Source of the DNA: an uncultured Clostridia bacterium
GTDB lineage: Bacteria; Bacillota; Clostridia; Christensenellales; UBA1242
Assembly: GCA_947366895.1 (NCBI GenBank)
Contig: CANBBP010000002.1
Span: forward strand, 124,001 to 188,000
Direction: 5' to 3'
Length of the DNA: 64,000 nt
Shown: piece by piece, positions 42,181-63,907 of the stretch
How the letters are laid out: each line of letters begins with the position of its first letter
How positions within the stretch are numbered: position 1 is the stretch's first letter
Translations under genes and position numbers: made by a program
Notes under the pieces: generated by a model
The model's database searches: none
What the model was told of the DNA's origin: nothing
The model's input: only the letters and a program-made list of their open reading frames with translations

Positions 42181-45100
42181 ATGAAAATTTTGTGTAAACA
42201 ATTTAAAAATGTTTTTGCAAAAAAAGTTTTTTTGCCTTTTCTTTTTATTGCCTTTTTTATTTTTTCATTTTCCTTATTAAATATTTTTACTAGTTTTCAA
42301 AAAATAAAGATTTTTGCAAATTCGTTTGAACAAAATTATCTTAATACCCAGCAGAAAGATGATAGTAAAATAGTTAATGCTGATATCTCTATGCCTTTAG
42401 TGAATATGGATAATATACCAACTGAATATTCATTATTTAATATAAAAACTATTATTGATAATTTTTCTCTAGAAAATAAAGGAAATAATGAAAATTTAAT
42501 AAAAAATGTTGGTACTCAAAAGGGCACATCTATTTGTTGGGCATTTGCTAGTTTAACAGCACTTGAAACCACTCTTTATAAAAGTGGAATAATACAAGCA
42601 AACGAAACTTTAAATTTTTCTGAACTAAATATGGCCTATGTTTCACAAGTTGTAAATCGTAATAGAGCAACTGTTTCAGGTGGCAATTTTGATTTAGCTT
42701 ATGAGTACTTATCAAGCGAATATGGCCCTGTTTATGAGCAAGAAGGAGAGGGATACAATTCGACAAATCAATCAAGATGGGCAACAGATAGTAGTGTAAC
42801 TTCATTCTATTCAACTAATTTCTATAATTCATCGCAAAAAGCAAATTATAGAGTTTTGGAAGCGATGTCATTCCCAGATAAAAATACATTAGAAACTGAT
42901 GAAGAAAAAACTAATTTAAGACTTGCTATAAAAAATCATATTCTTACATATGGTGGAGTAACATCTTCAATTTATATGGATTCCTCTAATTTGTTATTGT
43001 ATAATCAAACATATATTTGTACTAATGCTAACCTTAAACAAAATCACATGGTAACTCTAGTTGGTTGGGATGATGATTATACTGCTACAATAGGTGGCAA
43101 GACCTATGTTGGAGCATATATAGTGCAAAATTCAGCAGGTACAAATTTTGGCATGAATGGTTACTTTTATATAATGTATGATGATGCATTTGTAGAAAAT
43201 GATGTAAATGGTTTTACTAGAGTTGGAGTTGAACTTGATAACACTATTAACTATAACAATTTAAAAGAAACAAGTGTAAATAATAAATTTTTGACATATC
43301 ATTCAAGTACTTCAGGAAGTGGAGAAACTTCTTACAATATTAAAACTATTACTGATGATTTTTATGCCACTAATATATATAAAAAGGAAAATGTTTCAAA
43401 TCAGTTCATTTCAAGACTTAAGATACCTACAAGTTATAATAATAAGTCAAGTAAATTTTATGTCTATGTTTTAGATGGTTTAACTGGTGCAAATATTATT
43501 TCTTCAACTGCTATAAATTCTTATTTATCAAGTAATTTTAGCACTGCTACACAAGTAGAAAATAAATTTGCAGAAGGTGATGATAAATATCTATTTATCG
43601 CTAATCAAGCAACTTATTATACAATAGATTTAAAAGATAACATTTATATATCAGGTGAATATTTTGCTATTATAATAAAATATGTTAGTGGAAGTGTATT
43701 GCAATTATCAAATGATGATAGTTCGTTGTCACAGGCATATCAATTTACTTATAAATCAACCAATGCTATGGAGTGGTCATCATATTATACCAGTGATAAT
43801 AAACTTTCCATTTTGCCTATGATTGTACAAATGCAATATGACTTAGGTACTATAGATTATTCTTATGAAAATGTAAAAAAAGAATATGATGGAAAAAACG
43901 CAAATATTAAAGTAAATGTTTTAACAGATTGTGACTATCAAATTTATTATAACTTAACAAATAATATTAATGAATGGACAACTACAGTTCCTACTGTAAA
44001 AAATAGTGGAGAATATGATATTTGTTTTAAGATTGTAGCAGATTTTTATGAAACTATTGAAGATGTAATAAATGTTCAAATAGATAAAAAAGATATAACA
44101 GTTGTTGCTATTAGTGACCAAAAAGTTTATGGTGAAGGCGACCCAATTTTAAGTTATAGTTATACTGGCAATTATGAAACTCCTTCTTTTAGTGGAAGGC
44201 TTTCTCGTGAGAGTGGAGAAAATGTTGGTAGTTATAAAATAACAATAGGTTCATTAAAGTTAAATTCTAATTCGATTTTCAATCAAGATAATTATAATTT
44301 GGTTTTTGATAGTGCTGAAGTTTACTTTAATATTATTCAAAGAGAACTTTATATAACCCCAAATTTGACTTCTAAAATCTATGGCGATAACGACCCTGAA
44401 GAATTTACTTATTTATACACTAACATTGCTACAGGCGAAATACCAGGCTTTAATGGGTTATTAAGTAGAGAAACAGGTGAAAATGTTGGCAATTATGATA
44501 TAATTTTGAACACATTAACTTTAAAAGATAATCTTGCTGAAGATAGAACAAAAAAAGATTTTATAAGTACAAATTATAAATTAGTTTTGCAAAATTTTAA
44601 TAACAAATTTGTTATTAATAAAAGAGATTTGATTATAACACCTCAAGCTCATCAATCAAAAATTTATGGAGAATCTGACCCAGTTTTTACATATAATTAT
44701 TCAAATAATGTAAATGGTGAAATTCCTGTATTTTCTGGTAATTTATCAAGAATTGCGGGTGAAGATGCAGGAAATTATAATTATTTAATAGGTACTTTAA
44801 AATTAAATCAAAGTGATACTTTAAAAGAGGAAAATTACAATCTTGTTCTAAACTCAAAAGATAGATATTTTGCAATTACTTTTGGAGAACTAGAAGGTTG
44901 CAGTGTAAATAATATTAAAACCATTTATGATGGAAATTACTATTTTGTAACCCCAAGTAATTCTATATATAATGATGTAAATTTTAGTTTTAGTTTAGAT
45001 AAAGAAAGTTGGGTTGATAAAACTATTAAAATTAAGAATGCTGGTATTCACAATGTATTTGTAAAGTTCTCTAAAGACAATTATAGCGATACAATATTAA

Positions 45101-47196
45101 CAGCCACAATTGAAATTGAGACCCTTGAACTTGTTGTAACACCTATTGAAAATCAAACAAAAGTTTATGGCGAACAAAATGAAGAAATCAAATTTAATTA
45201 TAGTGGTAATTTACAAGGGGAAACACCTAAATTCACAGGTATGCTATCAAGAGAAATTGACTTAACATCTTCTAGTTTTGAAAGAGTAGGTGAGTACTTA
45301 ATTAACAAGGGAAATTTAGCATTAGATGATAATAATACTTTTTTAGCAGAAAATTATGTTCTTAAATTTAATTCAAATAATATAACTTTTGCAATAGTCC
45401 CTAGAGAAATAAAAGTAATACCAAATGCTAATCAGTTTAAATATTATAATACTAGCGATAATGTAATTAGTTATTCTTTTGAAGGGAATATGCAGGGAGA
45501 AACACCAACGTTTTTAGGTACATTAGAAAGGGAACCTGGAGAAAATGTTGGCAACTATAAAATAAAATTAGGTTCTCTTGAAATGCAAGATAATGGAAAT
45601 TTTAAATCTCATAATTATGTTTTAAAAATTACTGAAGATAGTTTTCTTGAAATATTACCTGCAAAAATAATAGTTAAAATTGAAAATAAGCAAATTTATT
45701 ATCCTGAAGAACCAATAACCGAATATCCATATGATATTTTAAATTTTAGTAATACAACAGGTTCTTATAAAGAAGGGGATAACCTTAATATAACATTTAT
45801 TTGTTTAGTAAATGATACTGGTTTAAAGGGTGCTTATAAGGTAAGTTGCAAAGCTTCTAATGAAAACTATGAAATTATTGTTCAAGAAGCAATATACGAA
45901 ATTTATTATCATGTTAAATTTATTGCTTATAATGAAGAGATAAAGTCCTTTACTGCAGAACATTTTTATACCTTAAATAATGAAGATTTTCCTAAAGTAG
46001 AGACTAAAGAAGGATATGTATTTGCTAACTGGTTAGTGCAAAATAGTAATGGAACTTTTTCAATTATTTCAGATAATTTTGTAGTAACATCAAATACAAC
46101 TATTGTAGCATTTATAGGGACACAGCAGTATACAATAAATTATGTTATTAATGGCGGAACTTTTAATCCATTAGTAACTAGTTATACTATTGAAACGCAA
46201 GATTTTTATCTTAATAATCCAATAAAACAAGGTTATACATTTTTAGGTTGGTATTTAAGTTCTAGCCTTACAGGTACTAAAATTACAAAAATAGAAAGGG
46301 GAAGTACTGGAGATATCACTCTTTATGCTAAATATGAAATAAACACATATGATATTTCTTTTAAAAAAGATGAAAATCTTCCATATTCAGTTGTGTATGA
46401 AGGAAAACCTGTTATTGAATATAATAATAGTTTTAAATTTAGTATAATATTAAAATCAGGATATACTCAATCTTATAATAAAATGAAGGTTTACGCAAAA
46501 AAAGTTATTAATACAAAATCCTTAGATTCAAAAGAGTTAAATAAAAAAGAAAATAACATTGTATTTAAGAAAATGACTGAAGAAGATGACATTATCGAAC
46601 TTATAAGGAATGAGGAAGGCTATTATATAATTGATAATATCTTTTGTGATTATGAAATTTTTTGTGAAAATATAACTTTAAATTCTTATAGCATATTTTT
46701 CTTAATAGATGATTATATCATAAAACAAATAAGAAAATCTCATGGTAGCAGTTTAAGTTTTTATGAATTTCCTGAAATACCTGAGAAAGAACATTATAAT
46801 GATACTATGCCTTACTGGAATATGGGAGAAATAGAAAGTGTAATTAAAGATGAAACAATTATTGCTAAATATGTTCCTAACGTACACACAATTACTTTTG
46901 TTATGCCTGATGGCAAAACTTATACAGCAAATGTTAATTATGGTGAAAATGTTTCAACCAAAATTTTAGAAGAGAATTATCATTTAGGTGTTTTTAATTA
47001 TTTTGTATTTAATAGTTCCCTTAATAATATAACAGGTGATAAAACAATTAAAGTCGCAATATATAGTAATGTATTTATTCTTTATATTGTTCTTGCTTGT
47101 GTTGCTATGATTGTAATTGTTATTGTTTCTGTAACTCTTATTAAAAAACGCAAAAGGGATACCTTTAACTGGTGGATATATACAAAGAGAAAATAG
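42181..47196 (+). CDS. cell-surface C1-type cysteine peptidase with MBG-like and InlB/Listeria-Bacteroides-type repeats
   Basis: N-terminal hydrophobic segment; GTSICWAFASLTALE, NHMVTLVGWDD, GAYIVQNSAGTNFGMNGYFYI; repeated KVYGEGDP...SFSGxLSRExGENVGxY units; GYTFLGWYLSSSLTGTKI; C-terminal TM. Confidence 0.9.
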   Translation: MKILCKQFKNVFAKKVFLPFLFIAFFIFSFSLLNIFTSFQKIKIFANSFEQNYLNTQQKDDSKIVNADISMPLVNMDNIPTEYSLFNIKTIIDNFSLENKGNNENLIKNVGTQKGTSICWAFASLTALETTLYKSGIIQANETLNFSELNMAYVSQVVNRNRATVSGGNFDLAYEYLSSEYGPVYEQEGEGYNSTNQSRWATDSSVTSFYSTNFYNSSQKANYRVLEAMSFPDKNTLETDEEKTNLRLAIKNHILTYGGVTSSIYMDSSNLLLYNQTYICTNANLKQNHMVTLVGWDDDYTATIGGKTYVGAYIVQNSAGTNFGMNGYFYIMYDDAFVENDVNGFTRVGVELDNTINYNNLKETSVNNKFLTYHSSTSGSGETSYNIKTITDDFYATNIYKKENVSNQFISRLKIPTSYNNKSSKFYVYVLDGLTGANIISSTAINSYLSSNFSTATQVENKFAEGDDKYLFIANQATYYTIDLKDNIYISGEYFAIIIKYVSGSVLQLSNDDSSLSQAYQFTYKSTNAMEWSSYYTSDNKLSILPMIVQMQYDLGTIDYSYENVKKEYDGKNANIKVNVLTDCDYQIYYNLTNNINEWTTTVPTVKNSGEYDICFKIVADFYETIEDVINVQIDKKDITVVAISDQKVYGEGDPILSYSYTGNYETPSFSGRLSRESGENVGSYKITIGSLKLNSNSIFNQDNYNLVFDSAEVYFNIIQRELYITPNLTSKIYGDNDPEEFTYLYTNIATGEIPGFNGLLSRETGENVGNYDIILNTLTLKDNLAEDRTKKDFISTNYKLVLQNFNNKFVINKRDLIITPQAHQSKIYGESDPVFTYNYSNNVNGEIPVFSGNLSRIAGEDAGNYNYLIGTLKLNQSDTLKEENYNLVLNSKDRYFAITFGELEGCSVNNIKTIYDGNYYFVTPSNSIYNDVNFSFSLDKESWVDKTIKIKNAGIHNVFVKFSKDNYSDTILTATIEIETLELVVTPIENQTKVYGEQNEEIKFNYSGNLQGETPKFTGMLSREIDLTSSSFERVGEYLINKGNLALDDNNTFLAENYVLKFNSNNITFAIVPREIKVIPNANQFKYYNTSDNVISYSFEGNMQGETPTFLGTLEREPGENVGNYKIKLGSLEMQDNGNFKSHNYVLKITEDSFLEILPAKIIVKIENKQIYYPEEPITEYPYDILNFSNTTGSYKEGDNLNITFICLVNDTGLKGAYKVSCKASNENYEIIVQEAIYEIYYHVKFIAYNEEIKSFTAEHFYTLNNEDFPKVETKEGYVFANWLVQNSNGTFSIISDNFVVTSNTTIVAFIGTQQYTINYVINGGTFNPLVTSYTIETQDFYLNNPIKQGYTFLGWYLSSSLTGTKITKIERGSTGDITLYAKYEINTYDISFKKDENLPYSVVYEGKPVIEYNNSFKFSIILKSGYTQSYNKMKVYAKKVINTKSLDSKELNKKENNIVFKKMTEEDDIIELIRNEEGYYIIDNIFCDYEIFCENITLNSYSIFFLIDDYIIKQIRKSHGSSLSFYEFPEIPEKEHYNDTMPYWNMGEIESVIKDETIIAKYVPNVHTITFVMPDGKTYTANVNYGENVSTKILEENYHLGVFNYFVFNSSLNNITGDKTIKVAIYSNVFILYIVLACVAMIVIVIVSVTLIKKRKRDTFNWWIYTKRK

Positions 47197-55759: not shown

Positions 55760-57412
55760 ATGACACAAATAGTGGCAAGCCAGAAGGAAGATAATTGTCA
55801 GAGAAATATAAATTTTGTTCAAAAACTTAAAAGTTTCTTGGATAGCAATTGGTCTATGTTACTTATTTCATTGATTGTTAGTATCTTTTGGGTACTTGAT
55901 ATCCCTATGATTTCAATTACATTTTTAACTATATTTGTTTGTCTTGTTTTTTCTATATGCAGAGAAAATCCAAAAGCATTTTTATTGCCTTTCTTATTAC
56001 TTTTATATTGTTTTAATTCTTTACCTAATGTAGCACAACTTATTTATTGTGTAGTATGCGGGCTTGTAGCAGTTGGGTTTTTAATATATTGTATTGTTTG
56101 GCAAATCAAAGTTAAAAAAGTTAAATGTACAAAAGGCAAAATGTTTTGGCCCTTTTTAATTTTAACTATAGTAAATTTGTTAGGTGGAGTAATAGGGCAT
56201 TTTAATATTTTTCTTACACTAATAATTTTATGCTGTTTTTTATTAATTTATTTTTTGTATTGGTTTTACTTAAATTTTACTAACAATTGTCAAAAATACT
56301 TTGCATGGTGTGCTATATTTTTTGCTCTTACTATTACTATTGAAATATATTCTAGTTATGCTATGACTGGAAATTTTATAGAAGCAATTATTAATAAAGC
56401 TGGTAGAGTAGGAGTAGGTGCTCCTTATAGTGGAAGTATTAATTGTGCTTCTATAATTATGTTATTAGGAGTTTGTTCAGGGTTCTATTTAGCAGCTGAG
56501 GAAAAAAAGGATTATCTTTATCTTCTAATAGTTATTGCAATTGATATATCTATCTTTTTTGCTTATTCAAGAATAGCAACTTTTATGGCTGCATTAATAA
56601 GTTTAATAGGTTTAATATATGTTATTGTTAAGTCGCAAAATAAAAAAATATATATAATAGTAAGTTCAGTTCTATTAGGAATTATATTATTATTTGGAAT
56701 AATATTTTGGGAAAAAACATTAGAATTATTTACCTATTATCTTAACATTGGTTTTAGCTTAAATGGCAGAGATGTTTTATGGGAATGGTGTTGGGAAGAA
56801 TTTAAAAAGAACCTTGCTTTTGGAATAGGCTTTTTTACAAAAGATTTTGCTGCTGTAGAAGGGGGAATACCTGGGATTCCATCTTATGGTAGTATTGCTA
56901 CAGTTTATTGTCATAATTTCTTTTTACATCACTTTGTTTGTATAGGCATTGTGGGAACAATTTTTATAATTCCTTTTTATATAAGAAAATATCAAATATT
57001 ATTAAAAAAAGTTACTAGTTATAATTTATTAGTTTTATTTCTTTCACTCAGTTTATTCCTTACAAGTTTGTTTGATCCTACTTATACTTCAAATTTATTT
57101 CTTATAGTTTTTGTATTAATACTTATATCAAGTTCTGAAAAAATTTCCTTTGATAATGAATCAGATGAAAAAGATGTTTTCATAAAAAATCAAAAATTAA
57201 CGTTGTCATCATGTGAAGAAAATATTATTATTTCATCTAATATAGATAATAAATCTGTAAAAGAACCTAATAAACAAAAACCAAAGGAAAATGTAAATAA
57301 AGAGAATATTACTTCAACAAAAAAACAAAAAGATAAAGAAAATAAAAGACCAAATTCTAAAGATACCAATTTGGTTAAAAATAATCAAAAATCGAAAAAA
57401 ACAAAAATTTAA
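55760..57412 (+). CDS. O-antigen ligase/polymerase-like multi-TM protein with basic C-terminal tail
   Basis: Multiple TM segments; NGRDVLWEWCWEEFKKNLAFGIGF...HNFFLHHFVCIGIVG (Wzy_C-like). Confidence 0.78.
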   Translation: MTQIVASQKEDNCQRNINFVQKLKSFLDSNWSMLLISLIVSIFWVLDIPMISITFLTIFVCLVFSICRENPKAFLLPFLLLLYCFNSLPNVAQLIYCVVCGLVAVGFLIYCIVWQIKVKKVKCTKGKMFWPFLILTIVNLLGGVIGHFNIFLTLIILCCFLLIYFLYWFYLNFTNNCQKYFAWCAIFFALTITIEIYSSYAMTGNFIEAIINKAGRVGVGAPYSGSINCASIIMLLGVCSGFYLAAEEKKDYLYLLIVIAIDISIFFAYSRIATFMAALISLIGLIYVIVKSQNKKIYIIVSSVLLGIILLFGIIFWEKTLELFTYYLNIGFSLNGRDVLWEWCWEEFKKNLAFGIGFFTKDFAAVEGGIPGIPSYGSIATVYCHNFFLHHFVCIGIVGTIFIIPFYIRKYQILLKKVTSYNLLVLFLSLSLFLTSLFDPTYTSNLFLIVFVLILISSSEKISFDNESDEKDVFIKNQKLTLSSCEENIIISSNIDNKSVKEPNKQKPKENVNKENITSTKKQKDKENKRPNSKDTNLVKNNQKSKKTKI

Positions 57413-59500: not shown

Positions 59501-59582
59501 CCCTTAAAACAAATAAATATGTTAAATGTTTTGCATTTTTTTCAAAATATGCTAAAATTTTGTGGAAAGAAAGAGGATTTTT

Positions 59583-60317
59583 ATGCCAAACAATCTTAAA
59601 TCTAAATCTAATGCCGAAAGGTTCATAATTGCCTATAATAGTATAGACTATTCTTTAAGGTCTATATATGGTTTTAAACGTAGTATAAGTTATGCAGATT
59701 TAATTAGAAAATCGGTATCATTAAATAGTGTGGTGCGTAAGTATGAAGAAGAATTAATTGATTATGGAAGATTAAGAAATTCTATAGTTCATAAAACAAA
59801 TCCAAACTATGTTATTGCAGAACCTCATGATGAAGTTGTTGAGGAGTTTGAAAAGATTGCTAAATTAATTGCAACTCCACCTACAGCATTCAGTAAAATA
59901 TGTCATAAAGAAGTTGTAGTATGTGAAAACACAATTTCTTTAAAAGAAGTTTTGCAAATAATGGCTAGAACAGGTTATCATAATATACCCGTTTATGAAG
60001 GGAATGTTTTGCAAGGTGTAGCAATAGGTCCAAAAATTTTAAAAAGATTGGGTGAGAATTTAATTGAAGGGGTAGATGCTACTAACTATCTAACAAATAC
60101 CAATGTTACTAATGTAATTGCAAAAGGCGAAGAAAATCCTTATTTTTTAGTTGCCGATATTAATATGACAATTGAAAAAGCATTAAACCATTTTTATATT
60201 AATAGAAAATTATCATCTATTATTATTACTGAAAAAGGAACTTATCATGAAAAACCTGTAGGTATTATAACAACAGCAGATATCCTAGATATGAATGCTG
60301 TTTTGGAAAATTATTAA
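59583..60317 (+). CDS. HEPN-like domain plus CBS domain pair protein
   Basis: N-terminal helical region with RLRNSIVHK; C-terminal CBS-like LKEVLQIMARTGYHNIPVYEGNVLQGVAI and MTIEKALNHFYINRKLSSIIITEKG...PVGIITTADIL; ATG 59583 chosen over GTG 59562. Confidence 0.75.
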   Translation: MPNNLKSKSNAERFIIAYNSIDYSLRSIYGFKRSISYADLIRKSVSLNSVVRKYEEELIDYGRLRNSIVHKTNPNYVIAEPHDEVVEEFEKIAKLIATPPTAFSKICHKEVVVCENTISLKEVLQIMARTGYHNIPVYEGNVLQGVAIGPKILKRLGENLIEGVDATNYLTNTNVTNVIAKGEENPYFLVADINMTIEKALNHFYINRKLSSIIITEKGTYHEKPVGIITTADILDMNAVLENY

Positions 60318-60398: not shown

Positions 60399-60905
60399 AT
60401 GACTTTTATGATTTCTTCAAGTACAAAAAATACAAAAAAAGTTTATAGCGATTTTGCAACATTTATAGCTTTAAAGAATAAAGCTATGCTTTGCATATAT
60501 ATTTGTTCGGTTATAATTGTAGTTTGTGGAATTATTTCAATATTGCTAGAAAATGATGTTTTTGAGGGAATACTATTCCTCGTTTTAGGCGTGTTTTTTG
60601 CCCTTTACGGAGTTTTAATGCGTTTTATAATAATTCTTAGTAACAAAAAAAATTACGATACAATCAATAATTATGAGTTTAATGATAATAATTTTATAGT
60701 TACTTTGATAGATAAAGATGGTAAACAAACAGCAAGCAGTACAATAAATTATGAAGTTCTTCAATCATTAAAACTATATAAAAATTATGCTTATGTATAT
60801 GTAAATAAAGCAGCCTGTTATATTCTTGTAAAAGAAAACTTTAAAGATGAAAATGAGTTTAATCAAGTTATAGATAATATCAAAAAGAATATAGTTTATA
60901 AATAA
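60399..60905 (+). CDS. two-TM membrane protein, short paralog of the next gene
   Basis: Two TM segments then soluble domain; aligns with N-terminus of 60987..63857. Confidence 0.75.
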   Translation: MTFMISSSTKNTKKVYSDFATFIALKNKAMLCIYICSVIIVVCGIISILLENDVFEGILFLVLGVFFALYGVLMRFIIILSNKKNYDTINNYEFNDNNFIVTLIDKDGKQTASSTINYEVLQSLKLYKNYAYVYVNKAACYILVKENFKDENEFNQVIDNIKKNIVYK

Positions 60906-60986
60906 TATTAAAAAATAAATCAACAAAGTCTTAAGATAAAAAATTTTTTATGCACAAACTAAATAAATAGTAAGGATAAAGATAAT

Positions 60987-63857
60987 ATGGTAGTAGTAAA
61001 AACTAAATATACAAATAAACTTTTTAATGCATTTGCAAGTTATAATATTAAAAAAAGTAGATTGATGATTGTTATTTACATAATAGCAGCAATAACATTA
61101 ATTGGTGGTGCTGCACTACTTATTATGAATAAAACTACCGAGGGCATTATAGCACTTATTTTAGGTGCAATTTTTGCTTTAAATGGATTATTTACAATAA
61201 TAATTAATAAAGTTTCTAATAGGCGAAACATAGGTTCAACTGATGTTATTATTTTTGATGATGATCATTTAGAAGTTACTACATTAGATAAACATGGGGT
61301 AGAGATAGCAAAGAATAGTTGTATTTATGCATGTATGCGTAATGCAAAAAAGTATAAAAATTATGGTTACATTTATCAAAATAAAGCAGTTGCTTTTATT
61401 GTAGAAAAAGAAAGTTTTGAAAGTGAAGAACAATTTAATGAGGTTTTAGATAATATTTTAAATCATATAAAAAAGAGTAAAAATCGCAAAGAACCTAATC
61501 CTCTTGTAATTGGCACAGCTAATGTAACCCCTCCAACAAAAGATATTGTTACAGGTACTGGTGAGCCAACCCCTCCACCTGAAATTGAAGAAGAAATAAA
61601 AAAAGAACAACAAGATAAAGAACAAGATAACTTAGAGGATAATATTAGTGAAAATAAAGAAAATGAAGAGGACTCTTTATTTTTACAAAATGAAAACTAT
61701 AAGGACATTAATGACACTGTTGTAAGCGAAGAATTAGAAACTGATGAAGATAATTTTGAAGCAAAAAATGATAAAGTAGATGATTCCCTTTATAATAATG
61801 ATAATGATGATTTTAGCGATATAGGAAAAACTCAAGAAAATAATGAAGAAGATTTATTAAAGGAAGAATCTTATGCAGATAATACTTTTAATGAAGAAGT
61901 AGATAACCAAGATTTAGAAGATGAAAAATTTTTAAATATTAGACCAACATTAAAACCTGAAATAAATGATTCTCAGGAAGAAGCTTTTGAATCTGAAGAT
62001 AACTCTGAAGATATAGACAAAGAATTAACTAGATTAGAACAACAAGAAATTGATAATTTAGATAAAATATATGCTGATGCTGATATTACCACAAATAATG
62101 AAGAAACTAATATTGATGATATTGGTGATTTAGGTGATGGTAAATCTTTTGATAATAAAGATAAAGATGATTTAATGGATGATGACTATGAGGATAATCA
62201 AGATAGTTATAATAATGATGTATTAAATGATGAAAATGATTATTCAAATGATGATTTATTAGATGATGAACTTCCTATGAATAAATTTAATGAAGATATA
62301 GATGACAATGATGAGAACGATAGCGATGAAGGTCAAAAGTATAATGAACCAGATATAAACGAGGAAGAAGAGGAAGAAACAGAAGAACCTTTAAATGAGC
62401 AATCATTAAAAGAATATGAAAATAATCAAGATAATTTTGAAGAAGAATCTTTTGAAGAAGAAAACAAAGAAGAAGATTATCAAGAAGAAAATAATTTAAA
62501 CAATTCTTATATTAAAGAAGAAGATAATTACTTTGATAAAAAAGAAGATGCTTTACTAGAAAATGCTGAAAATAATAATGCTATAATTGAAAATGTTGTT
62601 GATGAAAAAAAAGTTGATGAAAAAGTAATTGAACAACCTGTAAAAAAACATGCAGGCAGACCTAAAAAAACTGATGCAGAGAAAAAGGCCGCACAGCCTA
62701 AAAAAACCTCTACAGGTAAAAGAGGTAGGCCTAAAAAGGTAGCAGAGGATAGTAGTACTAATAAACCAAAAAATGCCACAACTCAAAAAACTTCAACAGG
62801 AAGAAGGGGTAGACCTAAAAAAGTTGTTACTGAGCAAGTTATAACTGAACAACCTGTGATTAATCAAGAATCTCAACCTGTACAGGAAAATGTTCCAGTC
62901 CAAAATAGTGTTGAGAATCAATTACAACCAAATTTAGCAAATGCCAATATGCAAAATCAAAACATAGTTGAGCAACCTCAAGTTATAATGGATAATAATC
63001 TTCAAGCAAACGCAACTTATCAAAATTTGGAAGAAACTAATCCTCAAACAAATAATCAACAAAATAATTTAGTTAATAACCAAGTTGATTCTCAAAGTGT
63101 ATTACCAAATCAAAATGTTGTTCAACCAGTTGTTCAAGGGGTACAAATTCCACAAACAACTAATCAAGTAGATAATAATCAGTTGGCACAAAATTCTAAC
63201 CAAATAGGGGTAACTCAGCCAATTAAAATGGAGAATAATACGGTAAATGCTCAAGAAAATAATGCTGTAATTCCTCAAAATAATATGCAAAACATAAATC
63301 CTAATGCTTCAAATAATTTAACTAATCCTATGGCAAATCAAAATTTGCAACAAAATTCAATTGCATCAAATAATATAGGTAGTAATACAGTAAACAATGC
63401 TCCTCAAACTAACTTAACACAAGCATCTTCTACAACATTACAACAAAATAATACTCCTACTAATGTAAATTCTCAGCCAAATTCTACTGTAACACCTCAA
63501 ACTAATAGTTCAGTAATGCAAAATCCAGCTATGCAAAGTGTTGTAAAACCTATTATAAATAATCCAGCACAAAATATAAACCAACAAAATAATAGTAATG
63601 TGCCACCACAACAAAATGTAAATGCACAAGTGTTAAATAATACAACAAAACCTGTTCAAAATTTTGTTAATCCTGCTGTTATGCAAAATCCAGCACAAAA
63701 CAATACAAATGCAGGGGTATCAGGTCAAAATAACTTAACTAATCCTAATGCTAATGTTTCAGTAGATAATGCTTCTCAAAATGCAAATAATATGAATAAT
63801 CAAAATTCAATTCCAAATGTTAATCAAACTTTAAATAATCCAAATAATTCTAATTAA
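60987..63857 (+). CDS. two-TM membrane protein with acidic region, three AT-hook motifs and N/Q-rich tail
   Basis: TM hairpin (LMIVIYIIAAITLIGGAALLIM; GIIALILGAIFALNGLFTIII), D/E/N-rich middle, GRPKK x3, long N/Q-rich C-terminus in a single 956-codon frame. Confidence 0.85.
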   Translation: MVVVKTKYTNKLFNAFASYNIKKSRLMIVIYIIAAITLIGGAALLIMNKTTEGIIALILGAIFALNGLFTIIINKVSNRRNIGSTDVIIFDDDHLEVTTLDKHGVEIAKNSCIYACMRNAKKYKNYGYIYQNKAVAFIVEKESFESEEQFNEVLDNILNHIKKSKNRKEPNPLVIGTANVTPPTKDIVTGTGEPTPPPEIEEEIKKEQQDKEQDNLEDNISENKENEEDSLFLQNENYKDINDTVVSEELETDEDNFEAKNDKVDDSLYNNDNDDFSDIGKTQENNEEDLLKEESYADNTFNEEVDNQDLEDEKFLNIRPTLKPEINDSQEEAFESEDNSEDIDKELTRLEQQEIDNLDKIYADADITTNNEETNIDDIGDLGDGKSFDNKDKDDLMDDDYEDNQDSYNNDVLNDENDYSNDDLLDDELPMNKFNEDIDDNDENDSDEGQKYNEPDINEEEEEETEEPLNEQSLKEYENNQDNFEEESFEEENKEEDYQEENNLNNSYIKEEDNYFDKKEDALLENAENNNAIIENVVDEKKVDEKVIEQPVKKHAGRPKKTDAEKKAAQPKKTSTGKRGRPKKVAEDSSTNKPKNATTQKTSTGRRGRPKKVVTEQVITEQPVINQESQPVQENVPVQNSVENQLQPNLANANMQNQNIVEQPQVIMDNNLQANATYQNLEETNPQTNNQQNNLVNNQVDSQSVLPNQNVVQPVVQGVQIPQTTNQVDNNQLAQNSNQIGVTQPIKMENNTVNAQENNAVIPQNNMQNINPNASNNLTNPMANQNLQQNSIASNNIGSNTVNNAPQTNLTQASSTTLQQNNTPTNVNSQPNSTVTPQTNSSVMQNPAMQSVVKPIINNPAQNINQQNNSNVPPQQNVNAQVLNNTTKPVQNFVNPAVMQNPAQNNTNAGVSGQNNLTNPNANVSVDNASQNANNMNNQNSIPNVNQTLNNPNNSN

Positions 63858-63875: not shown

Positions 63876-63907
63876 AACAAGACTAGGAAAGTTTCCTAGT
63901 TTTTTGT
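63876..63907 (+). terminator. intrinsic terminator
   Basis: aagactaggaaa gt ttcctagttttttg. Confidence 0.75.

What the first reader, a model, noticed from the sequence alone, without database searches (positions are those of the whole stretch)
60987..63857. Membrane-anchored protein with three AT-hook motifs and a prion-like N/Q tail
Sequence: two N-terminal TM segments and a soluble domain are followed by a long D/E/N-rich stretch, then HAGRPKKTDAEKK, GKRGRPKKVAED and GRRGRPKKVVTE (three GRP cores within about 170 nt, roughly 62650-62826), then several hundred residues dominated by N, Q, P and A. Knowledge: RGRP/GRPKK cores are AT-hook minor-groove binding motifs. Inference: in this very AT-rich genome the protein could tether the nucleoid to the membrane, with the acidic region as spacer and the N/Q tail mediating self-association.
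Basis: partly seen in the sequence, partly recalled or inferred. Interest (0 to 1): 0.75.

Follow-up and report, generated by a model that had tools for sequence, protein, structure and literature searches.

The report
Membrane protein with DNA-hook tail
An uncultured Clostridia bacterium encodes a membrane protein whose long tail carries three DNA-gripping AT-hook motifs, and its relatives have joined the same hooks to several unrelated membrane proteins, so these bacteria may hold their chromosome to the cell membrane in a way that I could not find described.

Summary
One intact 956-codon gene (60987-63857) encodes a two-helix membrane anchor, a YcxB-type PH-like domain, about 380 acidic residues, three GRPKK AT-hooks and an N/Q-rich tail. 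GRPKK is encoded only three times in the 1.44-Mb genome, all here. Predicted topology places the hooks in the cytoplasm. An ortholog in the same syntenic slot (CBS-YcxB-ileS) in a congener, split over two contigs, has four RGRGRP hooks between acidic stretches. Most congeners have only a short, hook-less copy, one has a Lys-rich tail, two have none. The N/Q tail is not conserved.

Outside the given coordinates, paired-hook arrays occur in 173/310 genomes of this family; in an order-wide sample, in 25/33 family genomes but 3/363 others. Most carriers are an unrelated three-helix coiled-coil membrane protein (MotA/ExbB/ZorA-like predicted fold), with 1-10 hooks in all 74 complete copies fetched. 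FtsH and a one-TM surface protein also carry hooks.

Best reading: a membrane-anchored, multivalent AT-minor-groove binder that tethers DNA to the membrane (confidence 0.6). It works like mycobacterial Rv3852 but is unrelated. DNA binding is inferred, not shown. The prion-like self-association idea is unsupported.

The parts
60987..63857 (+). P0001: 956-aa membrane-anchored AT-hook protein
   Evidence: orthologs in G002 and G008 at the same locus
60972..60976 (+). Shine-Dalgarno-like AAGGA, 10 nt before the ATG
   Evidence: sequence
61047..61202 (+). two-helix membrane hairpin (residues 21-72), N-in/C-in by positive-inside rule
   Evidence: hydropathy and charge; AlphaFold helices 9-46 and 50-79
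61239..61484 (+). YcxB-like (PF14317), PH-like cytoplasmic domain (residues 85-166)
   Evidence: 10 of 11 aligned homologs match PF14317, best E 5.3e-8; six strands plus helix; PH/PTB/FERM-F3 matches in PDB, weak
61503..62636 (+). Pro/Thr linker and acidic D/E/N-rich disordered spacer (residues 173-550)
   Evidence: composition; acidic stretch also in G002 and G008
62655..62669 (+). AT-hook 1 core GRPKK (HAGRPKK)
62724..62738 (+). AT-hook 2 core GRPKK (GKRGRPKK)
   Evidence: Pfam AT_hook at residues 576-587
62808..62822 (+). AT-hook 3 core GRPKK (GRRGRPKK)
62847..63854 (+). N/Q/P/V-rich disordered tail (residues 621-956), not conserved in orthologs
63879..63903 (+). intrinsic-terminator-like hairpin
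60399..60905 (+). P0002: short tandem paralog (2TM + YcxB, no tail), 38% identical to the N-domain
59562..60317 (+). CBS-domain gene, upstream syntenic marker of the locus (ileS lies downstream, outside the window at about 64486)

Best explanation
P0001 is a membrane-anchored, multivalent AT-minor-groove-binding protein. A two-helix hairpin fixes it in the cytoplasmic membrane with both ends inside the cell. The YcxB/PH-like domain sits at the membrane face. About 380 acidic disordered residues, repelled by both membrane and DNA, act as a flexible arm, and three AT-hooks beyond the arm insert into A/T tracts, which are everywhere in this roughly 26% GC genome. The outcome would be a weak, dynamic, largely sequence-independent attachment of the chromosome to the membrane. 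It is one case of a lineage habit: the same hooks sit on the cytoplasmic tails of unrelated membrane proteins in related genera. Shown: architecture, motif specificity, hook conservation in one ortholog, family-wide recurrence. Inferred: DNA binding, tethering, role of the acidic arm. The N/Q tail is treated as a dispensable disordered extension.
For: Three GRPKK motifs, the only ones in the genome by pattern search, with Pfam AT_hook above cut-off. Predicted cytoplasmic topology in 11/11 homologs. Syntenic G002 ortholog keeps 2TM-YcxB, acidic region and four RGRGRP[KR]K hooks. G004 ortholog has a histone-H1-like K/T/S/A-rich basic tail in the same place. AT-hook pairs in 173/310 family genomes with 0 control hits; 25/33 family genomes against 3/363 others in the order. 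74/74 complete coiled-coil membrane homologs carry 1-10 hooks, 73 of them at least two, modal spacing 18-19 residues. Hooks also on FtsH and on a one-TM surface protein. Precedent: Rv3852 is tethered to the membrane by a TM helix while bound to DNA (PMC8233713); forced membrane anchoring of a DNA-binding protein moves E. coli DNA to the membrane (PMC13190303).
Against: No binding or localisation data. Six congeners have only a short hook-less copy and two have none, so the gene is not needed for nucleoid attachment in the genus. The hook region of the G008 ortholog falls in an assembly gap, and the G002 ortholog is joined across two contigs by synteny only. Hook 1 lacks the first Arg (AGRPKK). 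The acidic arm (net -106) could mask the hooks. AT-hooks can also bind RNA or proteins (PMC11354804).
Confidence: 0.6

Rival explanations
1. Membrane-bound regulator or silencer: the PH/YcxB or membrane part senses envelope state and the AT-hooks act on specific AT-rich promoters (transmembrane transcription regulator or xenogeneic-silencer logic) rather than anchoring the nucleoid in bulk.
For: H-NS and Lsr2 silence through AT-hook-like Q/RGR motifs (PMC4466236); transmembrane transcription regulators are widespread (PMC10269533, found); one gene per genome would suit a regulator.
Against: No wHTH or other specific DNA-binding domain found. AT-hooks give little specificity in a roughly 26% GC genome. 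The same hooks occur on FtsH and a surface protein, which fits tethering better than regulation.
Confidence: 0.15
2. The hooks bind something else: RNA, ribosomes or the protein's own acidic arm (DNA mimic), so the protein clusters or auto-inhibits rather than binding chromosomal DNA.
For: AT-hooks in RNA binding are known (PMC11354804); the acidic arm next to the hooks could pair with them.
Against: The core is the canonical minor-groove GRP with flanking K/R, its copies differing only at synonymous positions, and kept in arrays at regular 18-19 residue spacing in relatives; generic RNA binding would not need GRP.
Confidence: 0.12
3. Neutral low-complexity extension of a YcxB protein without function in the tail.
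For: Tail length and composition vary; most congeners have no tail; the N/Q tail is not conserved.
Against: The hooks are the only Arg/GRP-rich spot, show synonymous-only differences, recur in the G002 ortholog and across the family far above control.
Confidence: 0.07
4. Membrane-proximal capture of incoming DNA (anti-phage or competence), since the main hook carrier of the family has a ZorA-like predicted fold.
For: The coiled-coil carrier matches ZorA structures at E 1.9e-4, prob 1.00; SNIPE shows that membrane-bound proteins can act on injected phage DNA (PMC13190303).
Against: P0001 and its neighbours have no PADLOC hit and the coiled-coil protein only a weak one (E 0.065); no MotB_plug partner in the genus; housekeeping neighbourhood (trxB, ung, ileS).
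Confidence: 0.06

Closest known systems
Rv3852 of Mycobacterium tuberculosis (membrane-anchored nucleoid-associated protein; PMC8233713)
   Same: TM-anchored basic DNA-binding protein reported to stay membrane-tethered while bound to DNA.
   Different: Unrelated sequence; KAAK/PAAK histone-like repeats instead of GRP AT-hooks; C-terminal instead of N-terminal anchor; no YcxB domain.
RocS of Streptococcus pneumoniae (PMC11500499)
   Same: Links chromosome and membrane in a Firmicute through a membrane-binding element, a spacer and a DNA-binding domain.
   Different: Amphipathic helix and an N-terminal DNA-binding domain rather than TM helices and AT-hooks; coiled-coil spacer.
HMGA (HMG-I/Y) proteins (PMC11354804)
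   Same: Several AT-hooks with GRP core flanked by K/R, joined by flexible linkers (and, from general knowledge, three hooks next to an acidic tail).
   Different: Small, soluble, nuclear; no membrane anchor or globular domain.
YcxB family (PF14317)
   Same: N-terminal 2TM plus YcxB domain belongs with this family (10 of 11 aligned homologs match).
   Different: P0002 and most congener copies are short and lack tail and hooks.
Coiled-coil AT-hook membrane protein of the same bacterial family
   Same: Membrane anchor, long cytoplasmic spacer, acidic stretch, array of AT-hooks.
   Different: Unrelated anchor (three TM, MotA/ExbB/ZorA-like predicted fold) and coiled-coil spacer; present in the window's genome without hooks (L110).

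Membership tests
AT-hook motif (PF02178 / HMGA-type) | GRP core flanked by K/R, score above Pfam gathering cut-off | tested here: met
   21.1 bits against 17.4; three cores
AT-hook motif (PF02178 / HMGA-type) | binds AT-rich DNA in the minor groove | not testable with these tools
   needs EMSA or NMR
YcxB family (PF14317) | profile match over gathering score (23.3 bits) | tested here: inconclusive
   window protein residues 1-172 score 19.3 bits, E 9.6e-4, below cut-off; 10 of 11 aligned homologs match at E up to 0.1, best E 5.3e-8
YcxB family (PF14317) | 2TM hairpin followed by a PH-like domain (feature from general knowledge and Pfam match position) | tested here: met
   (model pLDDT 64, so moderate)
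Membrane-anchored NAP, Rv3852 type | TM anchor with DNA-binding part in the cytoplasm | tested here: inconclusive
   predicted topology fits; DNA binding not tested
Membrane-anchored NAP, Rv3852 type | KAAK/PAAK repeats and C-terminal TM | tested here: not met
   sequence: anchor is N-terminal and motifs are GRPKK; works like, not a member
Prion-like protein | conserved N/Q-rich domain driving self-assembly | tested here: not met
   tail is 44% N+Q here but acidic and not N/Q-rich in the G002 and G008 orthologs; PLAAC not run; self-assembly untested
ZorA / MotA-ExbB-TolQ family (the other hook carrier, not P0001) | sequence-profile match and a MotB/ExbD/ZorB-type partner | tested here: not met
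   only sub-threshold profile hits, no MotB_plug in the genus, although the predicted fold matches ZorA

The most novel reading that the evidence does not exclude
One uncultured clostridial family uses a lineage-specific chromosome-to-membrane attachment system in which AT-hook arrays have repeatedly been joined to unrelated membrane proteins (YcxB hairpin, MotA/ExbB/ZorA-like coiled coil, FtsH, one-TM surface protein), and in this genus, where the main carrier has no hooks, P0001 carries them instead in some species. If the main carrier is a working ion-driven unit, it might even pull on DNA.
Probability: 0.3. Interest if true: 0.82.

Novelty: new variant of a known kind. Interest (0 to 1): 0.66.

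Why it matters
How bacterial chromosomes are physically linked to the membrane is a long-standing question; most proposed links are indirect (transertion, ParABS partners, amphipathic-helix proteins). A dedicated TM-anchored array of eukaryote-style AT-hooks, enriched in one bacterial family, would give a simple, directly testable tether (delete or count hooks). It would also show AT-hook arrays being moved between membrane proteins in evolution.

Tried and rejected
A genome-contig scan with the single N-domain found no relative. A paper search for AT-hook plus membrane-anchored plus nucleoid gave nothing, and broader ones gave no bacterial membrane AT-hook protein. YcxB literature is almost absent. 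The 64-aa hook region had no PDB sequence match. Prion-like tail: rejected as a conserved module. Assembly artefact: rejected, since the gene lies inside a 289-kb contig and orthologs share the long architecture. A strict rule that the coiled-coil protein loses hooks and another protein gains them: only 3 of 12 genus members (G000, G002, G010) have hook arrays elsewhere, so not a rule. Loss of HU as the reason for a tether: rejected for this genome, HU is present twice.

Full report
Observation. The gene at 60987-63857 encodes one uninterrupted 956-aa protein with a Shine-Dalgarno-like box and a terminator-like hairpin. It has two hydrophobic helices, a soluble domain, a 393-residue stretch of net charge -106, three GRPKK cores at 62655-62822, and a final 316 residues that are 44% N+Q. 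Shuffling the protein 20,000 times never gave two GRP[KR] motifs. The DNA pattern for GRPKK occurs three times in the whole 1.44-Mb genome, all here. Pfam's AT_hook cut-off is passed. Of 13 Arg in the protein, the six after residue 349 are all in or beside the hooks, and the hook copies differ only by synonymous changes in the core.

What the N-terminus is. The first 172 residues are homologous to the neighbouring 168-aa gene (38% identity) and to a gene in the same place in most congeners. Ten of eleven aligned members match YcxB (PF14317), best E 5.3e-8; the window protein itself scores below the cut-off. The AlphaFold model (pLDDT 64, two-sequence alignment) has a helical hairpin, six strands and a final helix, and Foldseek returns PH, PTB and FERM-F3 domains, all weak (best E 0.016). 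The basic N-tail, short loop and mostly basic stretch after helix 2 give an N-in/C-in hairpin, with a net positive N-tail in all eleven members. So the acidic arm and hooks should be cytoplasmic.

Locus and orthologs. The order trxB-ung-wzy-(dehydratase)-CBS-YcxB-ileS-rluA-groEL is largely kept in the genus (gene names from Pfam/NCBIfam where run, otherwise from the recognisable sequence). Six congeners have a short YcxB protein of about 170 aa. G004 has a 325-aa version with a K/T/S/A-rich, H1-like tail. G005 and G011 have no YcxB gene between CBS and ileS. G002 and G008 have the long form, 45% and 43% identical in the N-domain, but both assemblies break inside the tail. In G002 the other half starts contig C2, followed by ileS, and reads acidic - RGRGRPRK - RGRGRPKK - RGRGRPKK - RGRGRPRK - acidic tail. 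Joining the halves rests on synteny. In G008 the middle is missing and only an acidic end is seen before ileS. The N/Q-rich tail is therefore not a shared feature.

The wider pattern. A pattern for two neighbouring hooks occurs in 173 of 310 genomes of the same family, with no hit for the reversed control. In an order-wide sample it occurs in 25 of 33 family genomes but in 3 of 363 others (counted); two of those three are exopolyphosphatase-like proteins with GRPKK tails. Outside this genus, nearly all fetched family carriers are one protein: three predicted TM helices, a long coiled coil, in many cases YDENGNYVY-type repeats, an acidic stretch, hooks, and a C-terminal predicted coiled coil. 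Among 80 named relatives (uncultured Clostridia, including Candidatus Caccovivens and Ca. Caccopulliclostridium) all 74 complete copies have hooks, 73 at least two, modal spacing 18-19 residues. These 80 are the best matches to a hook-bearing query, so the figure describes that part of the family only. The protein is present in 25 of 26 sampled family genomes and has remote relatives in a few other families of the order. In the window's genus it is present in all 12 genomes, but the seven tails that were read lack GRP hooks; several have R/S/K-rich stretches before the C-terminal motif. Its predicted fold (pLDDT 83) resembles ZorA (E 1.9e-4) and, more weakly, ExbB/TolQ/MotA. Sequence profiles barely support this, and no MotB_plug protein is found in the genus, so I report it as a lead. 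Further carriers are a one-TM protein with six RGRP[KR]K hooks after its TM in G010 (Pfam AT_hook 39 bits), FtsH with three hooks in G076 and a coiled-coil protein without a clear TM in G066.

Mechanism. The common denominator is a membrane anchor, a long cytoplasmic arm and an array of minor-groove hooks, so I commit to a chromosome-membrane tether (0.6). Each hook is expected to be weak; several on one arm give avidity with quick exchange, which suits a chromosome that must be replicated and transcribed (inference). The negative arm would keep hooks away from the anionic membrane (inference). Shown: anatomy, specificity of the motif, one conserved ortholog, recurrence. Not shown: DNA binding, localisation, phenotype.

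Comparison with the known. The closest functional precedent is mycobacterial Rv3852, reported to be TM-tethered while DNA-bound, its TM-less form condensing the nucleoid (PMC8233713). RocS uses an amphipathic helix and a DNA-binding domain (PMC11500499). H-NS and Lsr2 use AT-hook-like Q/RGR motifs (PMC4466236). HMGA proteins are the closest motif precedent (PMC11354804). None is homologous to P0001 as a whole. My literature searches found no membrane-anchored bacterial AT-hook array, but the library holds only open-licence papers.

Verdict. Observation confirmed; tether interpretation plausible and strengthened by family-wide evidence; prion-like tail not supported. New variant of a known kind.

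Noticed in passing
L113:5072-7435, L114:5084-7999, L116:5361-7622, L149-L228; own genome L110:1012-3192: Family-wide three-TM coiled-coil membrane protein, in several genera next to an addAB-like gene pair, with AT-hook arrays outside this genus; predicted fold resembles ZorA/ExbB/TolQ with no MotB-like partner found in the genus. No Pfam family above cut-off other than AT_hook.
   Followed up: partly
L057:7052-8758 (G010:C41): Different protein in a congener: hydrophobic N-terminus, predicted extracellular domains, one TM, then six RGRP[KR]K hooks in the cytoplasmic tail.
   Followed up: partly
L118:4467-5984 (G076:C12): FtsH protease with a C-terminal tail carrying three AT-hooks (5' end cut by the contig).
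   Followed up: no
L032:6978-7955 (G004): YcxB ortholog whose tail is Lys/Thr/Ser/Ala-rich, like histone H1, instead of AT-hooks.
   Followed up: no
window 55760-57412: O-antigen-ligase-like (Wzy_C) membrane protein ends in a Lys/Asn-rich basic tail of about 80 residues, another membrane protein with a charged disordered tail.
   Followed up: no
L122, L123 (G595, G430; other families): Exopolyphosphatase-like proteins with three to four GRP[KR]K repeats at the C-terminus.
   Followed up: no
G003, G005 (genus members): No HU (PF00216) found, while the other ten genus members have one to three copies; may be incompleteness.
   Followed up: no
G002 C69/C2 and G008 C74/C50: Both assemblies break inside the acidic tail of the ortholog, suggesting repetitive or hard-to-assemble coding sequence there.
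   Followed up: partly
window 42181-47196: 1671-aa predicted secreted protein with one C-terminal TM and a short basic cytoplasmic end; a relative lies next to the CBS-ileS locus in G011.
   Followed up: no
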